A stretch of DNA of 24,292 nucleotides from a virus, in the IMG/VR virus record IMGVR_UViG_3300036045_000061, positions 1 through 24,292 of that record. One strand, 5' to 3'. Every line of letters starts with the position of its first letter. The first letter of the stretch is position 1. Of the stretch, positions 1 to 19,213 are shown in pieces. The notes beneath the pieces were generated by a model. The model did not search any database and was not told where the DNA came from. It was given only the letters and a program-made list of their open reading frames with translations. Made by a program: the position numbers and the translations under genes.

Positions 1-812
1 TCCAGCCCGTCTCCCTGGTGCTGCTGTCGGGAACTGATGACGCGAAGACGGCGACCGACGTGAGCGCCGCCGCGCCGTTGCCCGTGAGCGACGCCGGCGG
101 CACGTTGTCGATCGACGATGGCGCGGGCTCAATCACCGTGGACGGCACCGTCGCGATCAGCGGCACCGTCCCCGTCTCGGATGGCGGCGGCAGTCTGACC
201 GTGGACGGCACGGTCGCGATCAGCGGCACGGTTCCCGTGAGCGACGCTGGCGGCACGCTTACGATCGACGACGGCGGCGGCAGCTTGACCGTGGATGGCA
301 CAGTTGCGATCAGCGGCACAGTTCCAGTGAGCGACGCTGGCGGCAGCTTGACCGTGGATGGCAGCGTCAGCCTGGCGGCGGCTCTGCCCGCCGGTAGCAA
401 CAACATCGGCGACGTGGACGTGCTCACGCAGCCGGCGCGTGTTCGCACGACCGACGCGATCTCGGTGGCGCACCAGACCGACGCGATGATGGCCGGCCTC
501 AACGCGCTGACGCCTAAGTTCGCCTCGATCGCAGCCTCGTCGACCGGCGATAACACGATCGTAGCTTTGGTCGCGTCGAAGAAAATTCGCGTGCTGAGGT
601 TCATGCTGGTCGCCGCCGGCGCGGTGAGCGTGAAGTTCAAGACGGGCAGCGGCACCGACCTGACGGGCGCGATGGCGATCGCCGCGAATGGCGGCGTGGG
701 TGCGCCCTATTGCCCCATTGGAATCCTGGAGAGCGCCTCCGGCGAGGCTCTCGTCCTCAACCTCTCGGCCGCGGTCGCCGTCGCCGGCAACCTGACCTAC
801 ATCGAAGTGTGA
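1..812 (+). CDS. Phage virion-associated repeat protein, 5' end cut by window edge
   Basis: The reading frame is open from base 3 (QPVSLVLLSG...), so the true start lies to the left; the GTG at 18 is only the first start-like codon in the window. Residues 20-120 are a low-complexity array of a roughly 21-residue unit of the type VDGTVAISGTVPVSD(A/G)GGSLT, predicted to be extended beta structure. The last 100 residues (from FASIAASSTGDNTIV to LTYIEV) form a compact beta-rich domain that I recall from hypothetical proteins in phage structural clusters. It sits directly upstream of tail-completion genes with a 3-base gap, which supports a virion or neck/tail role. QPVSL-type beginnings are common in phage decoration or fibre-like proteins. 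The exact function is unknown; the phage structural assignment comes from context. Confidence 0.6.
   Translation, partial: QPVSLVLLSGTDDAKTATDVSAAAPLPVSDAGGTLSIDDGAGSITVDGTVAISGTVPVSDGGGSLTVDGTVAISGTVPVSDAGGTLTIDDGGGSLTVDGTVAISGTVPVSDAGGSLTVDGSVSLAAALPAGSNNIGDVDVLTQPARVRTTDAISVAHQTDAMMAGLNALTPKFASIAASSTGDNTIVALVASKKIRVLRFMLVAAGAVSVKFKTGSGTDLTGAMAIAANGGVGAPYCPIGILESASGEALVLNLSAAVAVAGNLTYIEV
138..371 (+). repeat. In-frame 63-bp tandem repeat in the virion protein
   Basis: Near-identical segments beginning GTGGA(C/T)GGCAC...GCGATCAGCGGCAC start at 138, 201 and 291, with a shortened copy at 354. Spacing is 63, 90 and 63 bases; the 90-base interval contains a 27-base insert (TLTIDDGGG). All copies stay in frame and encode a 21-residue unit. 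Such arrays can change copy number by slippage or recombination. Confidence 0.75.
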
Positions 813-8059: not shown

Positions 8060-9607
8060 ATGTCCCGTTTATCGTGTCCCCAGCGAATCGAGTCTCTTCC
8101 CATGCACGCCGTTTTGCTCGCACTATTGCTGTCCGTGCCGATTCAGGCTCCGACCCTCTACGTCTCCCCAGCTGGCGACGACAACACGGCGATCGTGGGC
8201 GACCCCAACCTCCCCTGGCGCACGATCGCCGGCGCGGTGGCGGCGCTAGCGGGCAAAGACAAAGCGGCGCACGGTTCGATCTTGCTGCAGCGCGGCGGGA
8301 CCTGGGATGAGCCGTTCCCGTTCCTCGCCGGGCTTTCAGCCGACCAACCGTTTAGGATCGGGTCGTACGGCGATGGGCCTCGACCCATGCTCATCGCGAC
8401 GAATGTGCGCCGAGTGGGCGTGCCGTGGGAGCACACTTCAGTCGAGTCAATCGACTTTTACGGCCGCGCGCATGATCCGTCGCTAGCGGACTTCGTGCCG
8501 CCGGCAAGAGCCACACTATGGGGCGGCAACTTCGACGAGGGCATGCGCGTGAACGCCACGGTGCGCGACTGCCGTTTCCGCTTTGTGGGCGTGGCGATGC
8601 AACAGCGCCCGCCGCACGCGGGCAACGTGATCGAGTTCGACCGCTGCGTGTTCTTGGATGCTTGGAACTCGGGCGGCGGCCACGTGTCCGGGCTGTACAC
8701 CACGGGCCTGGGCGTCTGGGTCCACGACAGCGTCTTCGATCACGGCGGTTGGTCCGAGTCCGTCGAGGGAGCGTGGGCGAACATGTTCAACCACAATCTC
8801 TATTTGAGCGCCGGGCTCGGAGTGCAGGTTGAGCGCAACGTGATCCTGCGTTCCTCGTCGATCGGCATCAAGATCCGCAATGACGAGCCAGGCGGCGGCC
8901 GAGGCGAGCACCTGGTGATACGGGACAACTTCGTGGCCGAAGGCGAAGTGGGTTTCTCCGTCGGAGGAAACACGGAATTGCCCGCTCGGTTCATTCGACC
9001 GCTGGTCGCGCACAACGTGCTCTTCGCGCTGGGACGCACGCTCGACGGGCCAGCGCTCGGGATCCACGCCTACGACTGGGTCGGTGGCGAGGTCGTCGGC
9101 AACCTCATGATCAACCCGCCCGATGGCTGGCAGGGTGGGACGACCTTTTTCATCAACTGCGGCGGAGCCGAGGACACCACTCGGGTCGCCGGCAATCAGT
9201 GCGTCGGCGTCAGGGGATCGCGCGGTGCGTTTCGCGCGTACGGAGGACCGTCGCAACGACTGGTTGTCGAAGACAACCTCTTCGACACCGACGGAATTGG
9301 CGCGGGCTTCACCGCGCCCCCTGAGCACCTGGTGTGGCGTCGCAATCGCTTCAGCGTTCCGGTCGAGCCACCGCGCGGGAAGGTGATCTTGCAGTGGCAA
9401 ACAAAGCCGGTCGACGCTGCTGTGCTGAGCGAAGCGGAAGTGATTCCAGCGGCGCGCGACCCGGCGCTTGTGTTGCCTTGCCCATGGCCTGAGTTCGTCG
9501 CGCGGGTGCGAGCCCAAGGTGAGACCGGCTGGGATGAGAGCCTGATGGCACCGGCGCTCAACGACCGAGCTCGCGCCGTCTACGGCATGGGGCGCGTCAA
9601 CCCATGA
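8060..9607 (+). CDS. Secreted right-handed beta-helix protein
   Basis: The 515-residue product begins with a hydrophobic stretch typical of a signal peptide (HAVLLALLLSVPIQA). The alternative ATG at 8102 would place this stretch right at the N-terminus; the ATG at 8060 adds 14 residues with Arg in the n-region. It is followed by LYVSPAGDD...PWRTIAGAV, the entry sequence of DUF1565/pectate-lyase-like beta-helices. Repeated coil-like rungs occur throughout (VRDCRFRFVGVAM, FDRCVFLDAW, VERNVILRSSSIGIKI, IRDNFVAEGEVGF, VEDNLFDTDG). Such proteins bind or cleave polysaccharides. Location in the tail-distal operon suggests a glycan-directed role, but a true tailspike would not normally need a signal peptide. 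It overlaps the next gene by ATGA. Confidence 0.7.
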   Translation: MSRLSCPQRIESLPMHAVLLALLLSVPIQAPTLYVSPAGDDNTAIVGDPNLPWRTIAGAVAALAGKDKAAHGSILLQRGGTWDEPFPFLAGLSADQPFRIGSYGDGPRPMLIATNVRRVGVPWEHTSVESIDFYGRAHDPSLADFVPPARATLWGGNFDEGMRVNATVRDCRFRFVGVAMQQRPPHAGNVIEFDRCVFLDAWNSGGGHVSGLYTTGLGVWVHDSVFDHGGWSESVEGAWANMFNHNLYLSAGLGVQVERNVILRSSSIGIKIRNDEPGGGRGEHLVIRDNFVAEGEVGFSVGGNTELPARFIRPLVAHNVLFALGRTLDGPALGIHAYDWVGGEVVGNLMINPPDGWQGGTTFFINCGGAEDTTRVAGNQCVGVRGSRGAFRAYGGPSQRLVVEDNLFDTDGIGAGFTAPPEHLVWRRNRFSVPVEPPRGKVILQWQTKPVDAAVLSEAEVIPAARDPALVLPCPWPEFVARVRAQGETGWDESLMAPALNDRARAVYGMGRVNP

Positions 9608-10104: not shown

Positions 10105-10140
10105 CCCCCGCGCTGGCACCCGTCAGCGCGGGGGATTTTT
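10105..10140 (+). terminator. Rho-independent terminator after the tail/Gp157 operon
   Basis: A perfect 11-bp stem CCCCCGCGCTG (10105-10115) / CAGCGCGGGGG (10124-10134) with loop GCACCCGT is followed by ATTTTT. It lies 34 bases after the Gp157-like stop and before the structured leader of the next operon, so it separates two transcription units. Confidence 0.88.
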
Positions 10141-10203
10141 CATGCGCGGCTCAGGCGAATCTTGGTGATCAAAGACTCCCGTCTTGCAAACTGCGCGGCG
10201 CGT

Positions 10204-10412
10204 GGTCTAGCCTCTCTCGCGATCGGGACTCTTACCCCGACGAGTTCGAGAGAGGGGACCGTGGCCGCCTGGCTGCGGTAACCAGCGCCCTCGGCCGTGG
10301 GTAAGAGCACGGTCCGAGGGCGTTGTCGTTTCAACGCAGGCTTTTCCCTGAGGTGCATCGATCGAGTAACGAGCCACAACGCGGGCCTGGCTTGCAACTA
10401 AGCCCCACGTTG
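10204..10412 (+). ncRNA. Structured 5' leader RNA with predicted kissing loops
   Basis: No convincing gene occupies 10141-10434. It folds into a series of hairpins. Hairpin A stacks GGTC/GACC (10204-10207/10257-10260), a perfect 9-bp CCTCTCTCG/CGAGAGAGG (10211-10219/10247-10255) and TCGGG/CCCGA (10223-10227/10236-10240), loop ACTCTTAC (10228-10235). Hairpin B is TGG.CCGC/GCGG.CCA (10262-10284). Hairpin C is CGCCCTCGG/CCGAGGGCG plus CCGTG/CACGG (10286-10322), loop GGTAAGAG (10300-10307). Loop C is the exact complement of CTCTTACC at 10229-10236 in hairpin A; counting the neighbouring base the match is 9 nt. CAGG/CCTG (10337-10350) and hairpin D (10377-10412) follow. The element ends just before the primase-like gene's Shine-Dalgarno. 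Likely a cis-acting leader; a free small RNA is also possible. No known class is recognised. Confidence 0.6.
10377..10412 (+). repeat. Hairpin D with the GGCCTGGCTTGCAACTA loop, copy 1
   Basis: Stem CAACG/CGTTG (10377-10381/10408-10412) and GGG/CCC enclose a loop that includes GGCCTGGCTTGCAACTA (10384-10400). The same 17 bases occupy the apex of another hairpin at 17764-17802 whose stem sequence is different. Downstream of both copies comes CCGGAGAA-ACG; in this copy that segment is the Shine-Dalgarno of the primase-like gene. The loop contains the palindrome TTGCAA. Confidence 0.6.
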
Positions 10413-10434
10413 AGGTGCAACCGGAGAAGACGAC

Positions 10435-12555
10435 ATGGAAGGTCCAATGAACGGGTCCGCGCCTGCGCGCGGATCGAATGGCCACGTCGCCGTGGCCGAA
10501 CGGCGCGGCTTGCTGGTGGTCTCACCAGACGACGCGCGAGAGCTGACTGAGGCAATGGGCGAAGTGGTTTCGGCCGTCGGTCCGCTGTCGCTTGTCGACC
10601 TACCCGAGCCGCGGGCGAGGATGGGGGAGTTCTGCGTCACTCTGCTCGTGCGCGAGGACACCAAGGTCAAAGCCGGCAGCGTGCTCGCGCGGCAGCTTCA
10701 GCGCTTTCGATTCGAGATGCAGGGCAAACGGCGAATCGTCGCGTTGCCAGGTTGGACGGAGCGCTCGTCGCTGCGTGGGTATCTCAATACGCACGCGCGC
10801 TTGCATCCCGACTTCGCCGAACCCGAGGGGTTCATCAGTTGGATCGAATTCCTGGCCGATTGGGAGCCGCCCACGGAACCCATCGGACCAGGCATGCCGG
10901 CGCAGCCTCGCGAGGATGACGACTTCGCGGAGTTCGACCAGTGGCCCAACGAGCCAGACGCGTGTGTGTACCGAGGGGTGCTCGGTGACATCGTCTCAGA
11001 GATCCAACCAAACACTGAAGCCGACCCGGTCGGGATCTTGATCCAGGCGTTGGTCGGCTTCGGCAATTTGATAGGTCGCACCGCGCACGGGCGCGTTGAA
11101 GACACCCGGCATTACCTCAACGAGTTCGCCGTGCTCGTTGGCGAATCGTCGGTCGGCGCGAAGGGAACGTCGGGCGACCGCGCGATGGCCATCCTGCGAG
11201 AGATCGATGCGACCTGGGCCGACACGCGCACCACGAATGGCATCCCCAGCGGGGAAGGGCTGATCGAGTTGGTGCGTGATGCGCGCCACGAGAAGCAGCC
11301 GATCCGCGAGAAGGGTCGAGTGGTCGATTACCAGGATGTGATGGTCGACGAGGGCGTTACCGACAAGCGCTTGCTTGTTTTCGAGTCCGAGTTTGGCGGT
11401 CTCTTGCGCATGCTCGAACGCCAGGGTAACAAGCTCTCGTCCGTGATACGCCAGGCGTTCGACGGCAAGCGCTTGCAGTCGCCTTCGAAGAATCGCCCAC
11501 TCTTCGCGACGAACGCGCACGTCTCAATCCTCGGACACGTGACACCGACGGAGCTGATCGCGCTGCTGAGTAACACGGAAGCGGCGAACGGCTTCGGCAA
11601 CCGGTTCCTGTGGATCGCGGTGCGGCGCACACAGGACCTGCCCAGCGGCGGCAAACCGCTGGTGCTTGGAAAGCTCGCGGTCAAGATCGACCGTTGTGTC
11701 ACTTACGCGAAGTCGATCCACGAGATGGAGTGGGACGACGACGCGTACGAGCTGTGGGCGTCCCGATACCGTGCGTTGGTGGCACCACCACCCGGACTTA
11801 TCGGCACGATTCTGAGTCGCGGACGGGCGCACGTGTTTCGCCTGGCGATGTTGTATTCGCTGCTCGAGCTCGACGACCGCCCCGCACAACGGCACCGGCG
11901 GATCTCGCTAACAGCGCTCGAGGCGGCATTCGCGCTTTGGGACTACGCCGAGCGGTCGGCCCGGTTCATCTTTGGCGAGGCCCTGGGCAACCGCGCCGCC
12001 GAGCGCATCTTGGATGCGATCCGCCACGCTGGCGACGAGGGGGTCTCCCGCTCGAAGATCTACGAGCTGTTCAAGGGGCGACGACCGTCGCGGGAGATCA
12101 ACCGCGACCTCGGTCTCCTGCTCAAGCATCGCCTCGTGCGGTTCGAACGAATCGAGACCGGGGGAAGGCCCACGGAGATCTGGTACGAGGGTGGGGTGGA
12201 AAGGGGTAAAAAGGGTATTAACCCCCCCGCGACCGACGAGGAAGCCGAACAATCCGGTCAAGATGGGCAAAACGGGGAACGCCAAGACGGCGTTTCGGAG
12301 GGGTTTCCACCCTTTTCACCCCTTTTTACCCCACCCCCAAACGGTTTCTCTTCCGATGGACGTGGGGCTTATTACCCCGAGCGCCCTAGTGTGCCCCAGC
12401 GGCGCGAGTGCGAGGGCGACGACGCCCAGGCCAACCCGACCAAGGCCCCGACGTTCGCCCACGTGGCGACGAACGGGTACCCCGTAGCAAACGGCCACCC
12501 CTCGGGTGGCAACGCGTCCCAAGCAAACGTGGACGCCCAGAACGAGCCTCGTTGA
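10435..12555 (+). CDS. DUF3987-type phage primase/helicase-like replication protein
   Basis: The 706-residue protein carries a P-loop-like segment at about 235-247 (VGESSVGAKGTS, the 'KGTS' variant typical of DUF3987/YfjI proteins rather than a classic GKS/T). Other family landmarks follow: ESEFGGLLRMLERQGNKLS, RQAFDGKRLQSPSKNR, then HVSILGHVTPTEL and NGFGNRFLWIAVRRTQDLP. After residue 530 there is a winged-helix-like segment (RAAERILDAIRHAGDEGVSRS), then a disordered tail of about 110 residues. DUF3987 proteins are found next to or fused with primase-polymerase domains in phage and plasmid replication modules; the first 150 residues are not recognised. GGAGAAG at 10423-10429 lies 5 bases before the ATG, which fixes the start. 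It is the first gene of its operon. Confidence 0.72.
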   Translation: MEGPMNGSAPARGSNGHVAVAERRGLLVVSPDDARELTEAMGEVVSAVGPLSLVDLPEPRARMGEFCVTLLVREDTKVKAGSVLARQLQRFRFEMQGKRRIVALPGWTERSSLRGYLNTHARLHPDFAEPEGFISWIEFLADWEPPTEPIGPGMPAQPREDDDFAEFDQWPNEPDACVYRGVLGDIVSEIQPNTEADPVGILIQALVGFGNLIGRTAHGRVEDTRHYLNEFAVLVGESSVGAKGTSGDRAMAILREIDATWADTRTTNGIPSGEGLIELVRDARHEKQPIREKGRVVDYQDVMVDEGVTDKRLLVFESEFGGLLRMLERQGNKLSSVIRQAFDGKRLQSPSKNRPLFATNAHVSILGHVTPTELIALLSNTEAANGFGNRFLWIAVRRTQDLPSGGKPLVLGKLAVKIDRCVTYAKSIHEMEWDDDAYELWASRYRALVAPPPGLIGTILSRGRAHVFRLAMLYSLLELDDRPAQRHRRISLTALEAAFALWDYAERSARFIFGEALGNRAAERILDAIRHAGDEGVSRSKIYELFKGRRPSREINRDLGLLLKHRLVRFERIETGGRPTEIWYEGGVERGKKGINPPATDEEAEQSGQDGQNGERQDGVSEGFPPFSPLFTPPPNGFSSDGRGAYYPERPSVPQRRECEGDDAQANPTKAPTFAHVATNGYPVANGHPSGGNASQANVDAQNEPR
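12203..12332. repeat. Purine/pyrimidine inverted repeat inside the primase-like gene
   Basis: GGGGTAAAAAGGG (12203-12215) is perfectly complementary to CCCTTTTTACCCC (12320-12332). The neighbouring GGGTGGAAA (12194-12202) is complementary to TTTCCACCC (12304-12312). The two pairings cross, so they cannot both form as one simple hairpin. The arms flank a low-complexity tail of the protein (GVERGKKGINPP ... FPPFSPLFTPPPN). Confidence 0.65.
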
Positions 12556-12578: not shown

Positions 12579-12690
12579 CGGGCCACCAGGCGGTTGGGTA
12601 CACCGCCGATCGATCCACCCGACCTCGGCGCTCTGGCGGAGTGACGTCCCCTGTGCGCGCCCGCGGTCTCTTACTCAGAAGGAGCAACGC

Positions 12691-12972
12691 ATGCTTGTGA
12701 TTTCACGTCGTCTGGAAGAGTCGCTCGTGATCGGCGACAACGTCGTCGTCACCGTCGTGGAGGTCCGTGGCAACCGGGTCCGCCTGGGCGTGAAGGCGCC
12801 GCCGAACGTCGAGATTGCGCGGCCGGAGCTCATGCCGGTCGGTCGTTTCGCGGCGATCCTCGATCGCCTCAAGTCTTGGGCCCGCGCTGCCGCCAAGCCA
12901 GCCGGCAAGCGCCGGCTCACGTTCGGCCGTGACGACTCGCCCGATCGCTACCTCGAGGAGGTGGCGCGATGA
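12691..12972 (+). CDS. csrA: CsrA/RsmA-family RNA-binding regulator, phage-encoded
   Basis: The first 48 residues follow CsrA throughout: MLVISRRLEESLVIGD, VVVTVVEVRGNRVRLGV, APPNVEIARPEL. The two RNA-contact regions are kept: strand 1 (LVISRR) and the C-terminal strand with Arg44 at the exact family position; His43 of E. coli CsrA is Ala here. CsrA dimers bind GGA-containing loops near ribosome-binding sites and control translation or RNA stability. At 93 residues the protein is longer than the usual 60-75, with a basic tail (KSWARAAAKPAGKRRLTFG) of unknown use. AGAAGGAG at 12677-12684 is a strong Shine-Dalgarno. Its stop overlaps the next start (ATGA). Being inside a phage operon, it could act on phage or host messages. 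Confidence 0.92.
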   Translation: MLVISRRLEESLVIGDNVVVTVVEVRGNRVRLGVKAPPNVEIARPELMPVGRFAAILDRLKSWARAAAKPAGKRRLTFGRDDSPDRYLEEVAR

Positions 12973-17763: not shown

Positions 17764-17802
17764 CCGCCCGCAGGCCTGGCTTGCAACTAGCCCTGCGGGC
17801 GG
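17764..17802 (+). repeat. Hairpin with the GGCCTGGCTTGCAACTA loop, copy 2
   Basis: A perfect 11-bp stem CCGCCCGCAGG (17764-17774) / CCTGCGGGCGG (17792-17802) carries the loop CCTGGCTTGCAACTAGC. The 17 bases 17773-17789 are identical to 10384-10400 in the primase leader, in the same orientation, although the stems differ. CCCGGAGAACACG follows, matching the Shine-Dalgarno-containing CCGGAGAAGACG at copy 1. Here no recognisable + gene follows (GTG 17815 opens only seven codons). The segment lies in the 5' untranslated region of the minus-strand HIRAN gene. Confidence 0.65.
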
Positions 17803-18000: not shown

Positions 18001-18068
18001 CGAGGATGACGGGGCTCGAACCCGCAACCTCCGGCGTGACAGGCCGGTGCTCCGGTCGGGCGGAGCCA
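18001..18068 (-). other. tRNA-Asp(GTC) 3' portion, likely attP core
   Basis: Reading the minus strand, nt 18047-18031 form an anticodon arm CCGGC-CTGTCAC-GCCGG with anticodon GTC. A five-base variable region AGGTT and a T-arm GCGGG-TTCGAGC-CCCGT follow, ending in CATCCTC plus discriminator G. A D-arm-like GCTC/GAGC stem precedes it, but its loop lacks the usual GG pair, and the sequence where the 5' acceptor strand should be does not pair with CATCCTC. The 3' half therefore matches a tRNA-Asp while the 5' part does not. A tRNA 3' end carried beside an integrase is the usual form of a phage attachment site; the host tRNA would be restored on integration. Confidence 0.65.
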
Positions 18069-18142: not shown

Positions 18143-18226
18143 GGTATTTAGTGGCCGCTCGCACCCCATGGCGCAAGCTTCCGAAGCGGTGAAACCCTGT
18201 TTTTCAACCCATTCGGAGCGGTGGCC

Positions 18227-19213
18227 ATGCCTCGAGTCACTTACACCCAGTTCATGGACGAGGTGCTGACAATATACGGAGCGCATCGCCCAAAAACGCG
18301 GGCCAAGATGCGCCAGGTTTTGCGAGAGATCGGCGAGACCGTGGACGACAACGGGAAACGCCTCGTCCGAAGAACCAGTGATTTACGCCCAGTGGTGATC
18401 GCGCACTGGAAGGCCGCTCACGAGGATCGATCGCCAGCGACAGTCCACAGTTTGCTCCGGAGCTTTGTCACCGCTTGCGCGATCGGCGTCGAGTCAGGAT
18501 ATTTCCGCGCGTCGCCGGTGGGTCGCCTCTCCCGCTGGGCCAAGCTTCCGAAAAAGGGCAAAACCAAGCTGGCGATCCCACCGGATCAGCTCAATGCGTT
18601 CCTCGATCGCCTCGACGAGGAGGCGTCGCGCGGCGGGTTCATTGAGCGACGGACTTGTGCACTCGGATATACGTATGCGTACACCGGCATGCGTAAGTTA
18701 GAAGCGCTTGGACTGCGTTGGGAAGACGCTGACTTGCGCGCAAATCCTCCGAAGGTCAGGATCGTCGGTCATGCCACGCGGCCGCTGAAGACCGACGACT
18801 CGGAGGGGGAACTTGCACTCCACCCAATCCTCGCACGGATATTGGTGCAATGGCGCGCGTGGCTACACAGGTCAGGCAACGAGTGGCTACGCTCGACTCC
18901 GTGGATATTCCCGAACGTCAACGGAGCTGGGAAGGGCTGGTGGGAGGCTGGCCCGGTTGGCCACAAGCCTCTCGATCGGATTAAGGCCGTGGGCGAACGT
19001 TGCGGCGTCAACAACCTGACGATCGCGGCCTTCCGCAAAACGATAGGCACGTTCGCGAGGCGGTGGGACCTGACGCCTGAGGAAATCCGAGACTGGTTTC
19101 GGCATACGCGTCTTGAAACGCAACAGTGGTACGACGAAGGCGACGCAGAGTTCACCCAGCAGCGACTCAAGCAGATCGCCGACAAACTCTCGTTCCGCGT
19201 TGCGACGGCGTGA
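18227..19213 (+). CDS. Tyrosine recombinase (phage integrase)
   Basis: I use the ATG at 18227 (GGAG 18215-18218, spacing 8); GTG 18221 is in frame. The 328-residue product has an N-terminal SAM-like core-binding domain (about 10-100) and a catalytic domain from 115. Catalytic residues by position: Arg156 in TGMRKLEALGLRW, Lys189 (LKTDDSEG), Arg270 in TIAAFRKT, His293 in WFRHTRLETQ and the nucleophile Tyr302 in QQWYDEG. The box II His (HxxR) is replaced by Ala267. The protein would recombine attP and attB; the neighbouring tRNA-Asp fragment is its probable site. Confidence 0.88.
   Translation: MPRVTYTQFMDEVLTIYGAHRPKTRAKMRQVLREIGETVDDNGKRLVRRTSDLRPVVIAHWKAAHEDRSPATVHSLLRSFVTACAIGVESGYFRASPVGRLSRWAKLPKKGKTKLAIPPDQLNAFLDRLDEEASRGGFIERRTCALGYTYAYTGMRKLEALGLRWEDADLRANPPKVRIVGHATRPLKTDDSEGELALHPILARILVQWRAWLHRSGNEWLRSTPWIFPNVNGAGKGWWEAGPVGHKPLDRIKAVGERCGVNNLTIAAFRKTIGTFARRWDLTPEEIRDWFRHTRLETQQWYDEGDAEFTQQRLKQIADKLSFRVATA

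What the first reader, a model, noticed from the sequence alone, without database searches (positions are those of the whole stretch)
10204..10322. Two leader hairpins with fully complementary loops: predicted kissing-loop RNA before the primase-csrA operon
Hairpin A (10204-10260) presents ACTCTTAC and hairpin C (10286-10322) presents GGTAAGAG. The entire loop of C is the reverse complement of CTCTTACC at 10229-10236, extended to 9 nt with the closing base. Both stems are long (perfect 9 bp plus inner 5 bp; 9 bp plus inner 5 bp), and a third hairpin (10262-10284) fits between them. Long stable stems together with exact loop complementarity are unlikely by chance. The element lies just downstream of a strong terminator, in the leader of the replication operon. 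I recognise no known RNA class.
Basis: seen in the sequence. Interest (0 to 1): 0.8.

Follow-up and report, generated by a model that had tools for sequence, protein, structure and literature searches.

The report
Orphan phage leader with complementary hairpin loops
Just upstream of a phage's DNA-replication gene the transcript can fold into two very strong hairpins whose exposed loops match each other base for base, which chance rarely produces, but no relative of the element could be found, so whether the loops really bind and what they control remains unproven.

Summary
Hairpin A spans 10195-10268 (27 bp, loop 10228-10235 ACUCUUAC) and hairpin C spans 10283-10325 (17 bp, loop 10300-10307 GGUAAGAG). 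Folding is far better than shuffles (z -5.3), and both loops are unpaired with probability 1.0. Seven loop nucleotides can pair (10229-10235 with 10301-10307); the DNA complementarity is 9 nt. Of 3,000 resamples of the window, 4 held such a loop pair between hairpins of at least 17 bp and 1 at at least 20 bp; 3.2 Mb strand-nt of other real DNA held none. The 'third hairpin' is not supported.

The kissing-loop reading is plausible but untested by evolution. No homologous leader was found in phages, plasmids, IMG/VR patterns, about 400 genomes of one bacterial phylum, Rfam, or upstream of DUF3987 relatives, so there is no covariation evidence either way. Best explanation: a transcribed 5'-leader module, two rigid hairpins clasped by a 7-bp loop-loop helix, acting in cis on the DUF3987-csrA operon. 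Rivals: stable hairpins with chance complementarity; inverted protein-binding sites in DNA; loop C as an antisense seed (CTCTTAC recurs only once more in the window, directly upstream of the csrA ribosome-binding site). An interesting but unconfirmed orphan.

The parts
10105..10134 (+). Strong intrinsic-terminator-like hairpin that closes the upstream operon
   Evidence: 13-pair stem followed by ATTTTT
10195..10268 (+). Hairpin A: 27-bp bulged stem with loop ACUCUUAC
   Evidence: MFE fold -44.8 kcal/mol, z -4.0; pair table
10228..10235 (+). Loop A; 10229-10235 (CUCUUAC) is the predicted kissing partner of loop C
   Evidence: P(unpaired) = 1.0 at every position
10283..10325 (+). Hairpin C: 17-bp stem (one bulged U) with loop GGUAAGAG
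   Evidence: Core 10286-10322 folds at -28.9 kcal/mol, z -6.1; pair table
10300..10307 (+). Loop C; 10301-10307 (GUAAGAG) complements loop A
   Evidence: P(unpaired) = 1.0; exact 9-nt reverse complement 10229-10237/10299-10307
10269..10282 (+).
   Evidence: Mixed pairing probabilities; 10262-10284 alone z -0.4
10435..12555 (+). DUF3987 gene (helicase/primase-like), first gene after the leader
   Evidence: PF13148 E 5e-15; PHROG helicase/primase
12668..12675 (+). CUCUUACU: only other CTCTTAC in the window, just upstream of the csrA Shine-Dalgarno; candidate second target of loop C
12691..12972 (+). csrA-like gene
   Evidence: PF02599 E 1.3e-19

Best explanation
The segment is a structured 5'-leader of the DUF3987-csrA transcript. 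Two long, rigid hairpins present 8-nt loops that clasp each other through a 7-bp loop-loop (kissing) helix, giving a compact knob about 110 nt upstream of the DUF3987 start codon. Its most likely job is in cis: setting the stability of the replication-operon mRNA, or the folding of the downstream leader during transcription or translation. Shown by computation: the hairpins, the open loops, complementarity in excess of chance, and the position. Inferred: that the segment is transcribed, that the loops actually kiss, that the action is in cis, and the regulatory effect.
For: Fold far more stable than shuffles, z -5.3 and z -6.1 for the core of C; loops open with P = 1.0; 7 loop-only complementary nucleotides are rare under two null models; loop-loop duplex energy -6.9 kcal/mol for 7 bp; lies between a strong terminator and the replication gene with no protein-family match in the overlapping ORFs; among the 107 IMG/VR stretches with the same two octamers none scored better than the window except inverted repeats whose octamers pair in one stem rather than in two loops.
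Against: No homologous leader, hence no covariation; no sigma-70-like promoter found; the fold is equally strong on the minus strand and as DNA; null thresholds chosen post hoc; the linker may be too short for an in-line stack of both full-length hairpins, so a bend at A's 4-nt bulge would be needed (geometric inference).
Confidence: 0.4

Rival explanations
1. Two independent stable hairpins (mRNA-stabilising, processing or terminator-like) whose loop complementarity is a chance match picked out of a 24-kb window.
For: 49 of 3,000 resamples hold such a pair at a looser stem limit of 12 bp, and other real loci hold 4 cases in 3.24 Mb strand-nt; no comparative evidence for the pairing; the window was scanned by eye for anything unusual.
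Against: At the stem lengths seen here only 1-4 of 3,000 resamples hold a case, and no other real locus does.
Confidence: 0.3
2. DNA element: CTCTTACCC and its inverted copy GGGTAAGAG, 61 nt apart, are operator or origin sites for a phage protein, with the hairpins as cruciform or single-strand structures, possibly part of a replication origin next to the helicase gene.
For: Exact 9-bp inverted repeat; a one-mismatch third copy before csrA; strong folding as DNA and on the other strand; position next to a replication gene.
Against: No iteron array, no AT-rich stretch and no GC-skew switch at the site; an operator does not require that the sites sit exactly in hairpin loops.
Confidence: 0.15
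3. Antisense device: loop C pairs with CUCUUACU (12668-12675) at the csrA ribosome-binding site, in the same mRNA or in trans, and loop A is an internal decoy that holds loop C back.
For: CTCTTAC occurs three times on both strands of the window: loop A, complement of loop C, and before the csrA Shine-Dalgarno; of 32 listed gene starts csrA is the best partner of loop C, -12.7 kcal/mol.
Against: 1.7% of plus-strand windows pair as well; the csrA site is partly paired locally; found post hoc; the intramolecular partner should win; no terminator-like site follows hairpin C.
Confidence: 0.1

Closest known systems
ColE1 RNAI/RNAII loop-loop kissing (PMC9458437; details from own knowledge)
   Same: Stem-loops with 7-nt complementary loop sequences, stable enough for loop-loop helices
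   Different: Those are two antisense transcripts acting in trans; here both hairpins lie on one strand in one leader, without an antisense gene
phi29 prohead RNA (PMC7357161)
   Same: A phage RNA with two different stem-loops whose loops complement each other and can join molecules
   Different: phi29 pairs 4 nt and works in the DNA-packaging motor; this element has 7 nt and precedes a replication gene, with no Rfam match
HIV-1 dimerisation initiation site (PMC7357161)
   Same: Kissing loops with unpaired flanking purines in a 5' leader
   Different: A palindromic loop that pairs with its own copy; here two different loops, so an intramolecular contact is possible
Purine-riboswitch-type parallel hairpins locked by loop-loop contacts (own knowledge)
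   Same: Two hairpins of one leader held side by side by their loops
   Different: No three-way junction or conserved ligand core seen; no Rfam riboswitch match

Membership tests
Any Rfam 15 family | Covariance-model match to the element | tested here: not met
   None at gathering score; with E up to 10 only two chance-level matches, both on the upstream terminator
Evolutionarily conserved kissing-loop leader RNA | Covariation in stems and loops across homologues | not testable with these tools
   No homologue found
Kissing-loop RNA (works like) | Two stable hairpins with open loops that have at least 6-7 complementary loop nucleotides | tested here: met
   (prediction only; the contact itself was not observed)
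phi29-type pRNA | Rfam pRNA match and packaging-module context | tested here: not met
   No Rfam match; neighbours are replication genes
CsrB/RsmZ-type CsrA sponge | Several GGA motifs in apical loops | tested here: not met
   Loops are ACUCUUAC and GGUAAGAG; the GGA triplets of the leader lie in stems or at the ribosome-binding site
Intrinsic terminator | GC-rich stem followed directly by a T run | tested here: not met
   Neither hairpin A nor C is listed; only 10105-10134 and a sub-stem of it
REPIN-like inverted duplicated hairpin | Hairpin C is an inverted copy of hairpin A, stems included | tested here: inconclusive
   Stem flanks align no better than about 10% of structure-preserving shuffles

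The most novel reading that the evidence does not exclude
A phage replication-operon leader that works as a self-restrained antisense device: loop C targets the ribosome-binding site of the phage's own csrA (12668-12675), loop A is an internal decoy of that site, and opening of the kissing contact couples transcription of the replication gene to control of a CsrA-type regulator.
Probability: 0.06. Interest if true: 0.75.

Novelty: new member of a known kind. Interest (0 to 1): 0.35.

Why it matters
Kissing-loop leaders in front of DNA-phage replication operons are, as far as I know, rarely described, so a confirmed one in an operon that also carries csrA would be a compact test case for RNA control of phage replication genes. 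As it stands it is a single orphan sequence; its value is that compensatory loop mutants could settle it quickly.

Tried and rejected
Rfam at gathering and permissive thresholds: nothing in the element. HDV-like ribozyme: considered because UGGUCNNAGCCUC looked familiar from memory; no Rfam match, not pursued. Blastn against phages and plasmids: nothing significant. IMG/VR scans for both loop sequences at similar spacing: 4 and 107 stretches; the best were folded and are inverted repeats or do not present both octamers in loops. DUF3987 relatives in Streptomyces and Thermobifida phages, a Pseudonocardiales MAG and 11 of 296 genomes of that phylum: no comparable leader in those examined. Relatives through csrA: none. 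Relatives through the ParB/methyltransferase: 80 loci, but 50 of their records show no DUF3987 match. A covariance model from the single sequence found only the element (its own reverse strand E 0.07, other loci E 0.57 or worse) and nothing in 20 more viral records. Host not identified; integrase matches in that phylum are distant. Alternative 8-bp helix 10256-10263/10308-10315: forcing it costs about 18 kcal/mol. Inverted duplication of the hairpins: not supported.

Full report
WHAT IS THERE. The window is a 24,292-base IMG/VR virus record with siphovirus-like tail genes, a Gp157-like gene, a DUF3987 gene, csrA, an integrase and a ParB/methyltransferase gene. Between the Gp157-like ORF, closed by a strong terminator at 10105-10134, and the DUF3987 start at 10435 lies a 300-nt stretch whose overlapping ORFs match no Pfam or PHROG family.

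THE HAIRPINS. Folding 10195-10330 as RNA gives -81.2 kcal/mol against -59.8 +/- 4.1 for dinucleotide shuffles (z -5.3). Hairpin A is a 27-bp stem over 10195-10268 with a 4-nt and a 1-nt bulge and the 8-nt loop ACUCUUAC at 10228-10235. Hairpin C is a 17-bp stem over 10283-10325 with one bulge and the 8-nt loop GGUAAGAG at 10300-10307. All loop positions are unpaired with probability 1.0, also in the wider 10135-10520 context.

THE COMPLEMENTARITY. CTCTTACCC (10229-10237) and GGGTAAGAG (10299-10307) are exact reverse complements. With both hairpins intact, seven loop-only pairs can form (10229-10235 with 10301-10307), leaving one 5' purine in each loop. To measure chance I enumerated neighbouring hairpins with complementary loops in Markov resamples of the window and in other fetched DNA. 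For hairpins of at least 12, 14, 17 and 20 bp, 49, 19, 4 and 1 of 3,000 resamples contain a case; 3.24 Mb strand-nt of other loci contain 4, 1, 0 and 0. The thresholds were set after the fact, so I read this as unusual, roughly one in a thousand windows, and not as proof.

NO RELATIVES. DNA queries covering the leader found nothing convincing in phages, plasmids or 396 genomes of one phylum; the matches are scraps of 21-50 nt at E about 0.001-0.01. Two IMG/VR scans for the paired octamers gave 4 and 107 stretches; a screen for stems around both octamers, and folding of the best cases, showed inverted repeats or octamers not held in two loops. DUF3987 relatives exist in actinobacterial phages and genomes (about 24-44% identity), but the upstream regions examined do not show this element. 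One identical contig (L008) ends at window position 9425, before the leader. A covariance model from the single sequence found nothing else of note, and Rfam has nothing. Covariation, the test that would separate kissing from coincidence, therefore could not be made.

WHAT IT MIGHT DO. The position after a terminator and before a replication gene favours a 5' leader (inference; no sigma-70-like promoter was found). The two-hairpin knob lies about 110 nt upstream of the start codon, so it does not mask the ribosome-binding site directly; control of mRNA stability or of leader folding in cis is the most economical reading (inference). A second thread is csrA: the heptamer CTCTTAC occurs three times on both strands of the window, the third at 12668-12674 immediately before the csrA Shine-Dalgarno. 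Of 32 listed gene starts csrA is loop C's best partner, but 1.7% of all plus-strand 40-nt windows do as well. This is a lead, not a result. [quoted passage not shown] A DNA reading (inverted operator or origin sites) is also compatible with the 9-bp inverted repeat and with the strong folding as DNA and on the minus strand, though no iteron array, AT-rich stretch or skew switch marks an origin.

COMPARISON. If it works, it works like known kissing-loop RNAs (ColE1 RNAI/RNAII, HIV-1 DIS, phi29 pRNA; PMC9458437, PMC7357161), but by the features tested it belongs to none of these families. It is not CsrB-like (no GGA in the loops) and not an intrinsic terminator, and an inverted duplication of one hairpin is not supported.

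VERDICT. The hairpins and complementary loops are there and uncommon. The kissing interaction and any function are unproven, and the element is an orphan in everything searched.

Noticed in passing
window 10376-10416 and 17764-17802: The 17-mer GGCCTGGCTTGCAACTA (10384-10400 and 17773-17789) is duplicated; each copy sits in a hairpin whose outer stem differs in sequence but still pairs, and each is followed by CCGGAGAA. The first copy lies just before the DUF3987 start. The exact 17-mer is absent from the other IMG/VR contigs.
   Followed up: partly
window 18009-18068 (-) and 18221-19213 (+): tRNA-like stretch with an Asp-type anticodon loop, not a complete tRNA by ARAGORN, next to a tyrosine-type integrase gene: a probable attP site.
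   Followed up: partly
window 10349-10357 and 10411-10419: TGAGGTGCA is directly repeated 62 nt apart in the leader, each copy downstream of a CAACGC(A/G)GGC string.
   Followed up: no
window 12667-12690: CUCUUACU lies directly upstream of the csrA Shine-Dalgarno AGAAGGAG and complements loop C.
   Followed up: partly
window 76-368: Imperfect direct repeats (units spaced 63 and 90 nt) inside the first ORF, possibly a repetitive structural protein.
   Followed up: no
L060:7049-7211: Another neighbouring hairpin pair with complementary loops (CGCCTGGC / CGCCAGGCGC), the best other case in the control DNA.
   Followed up: no
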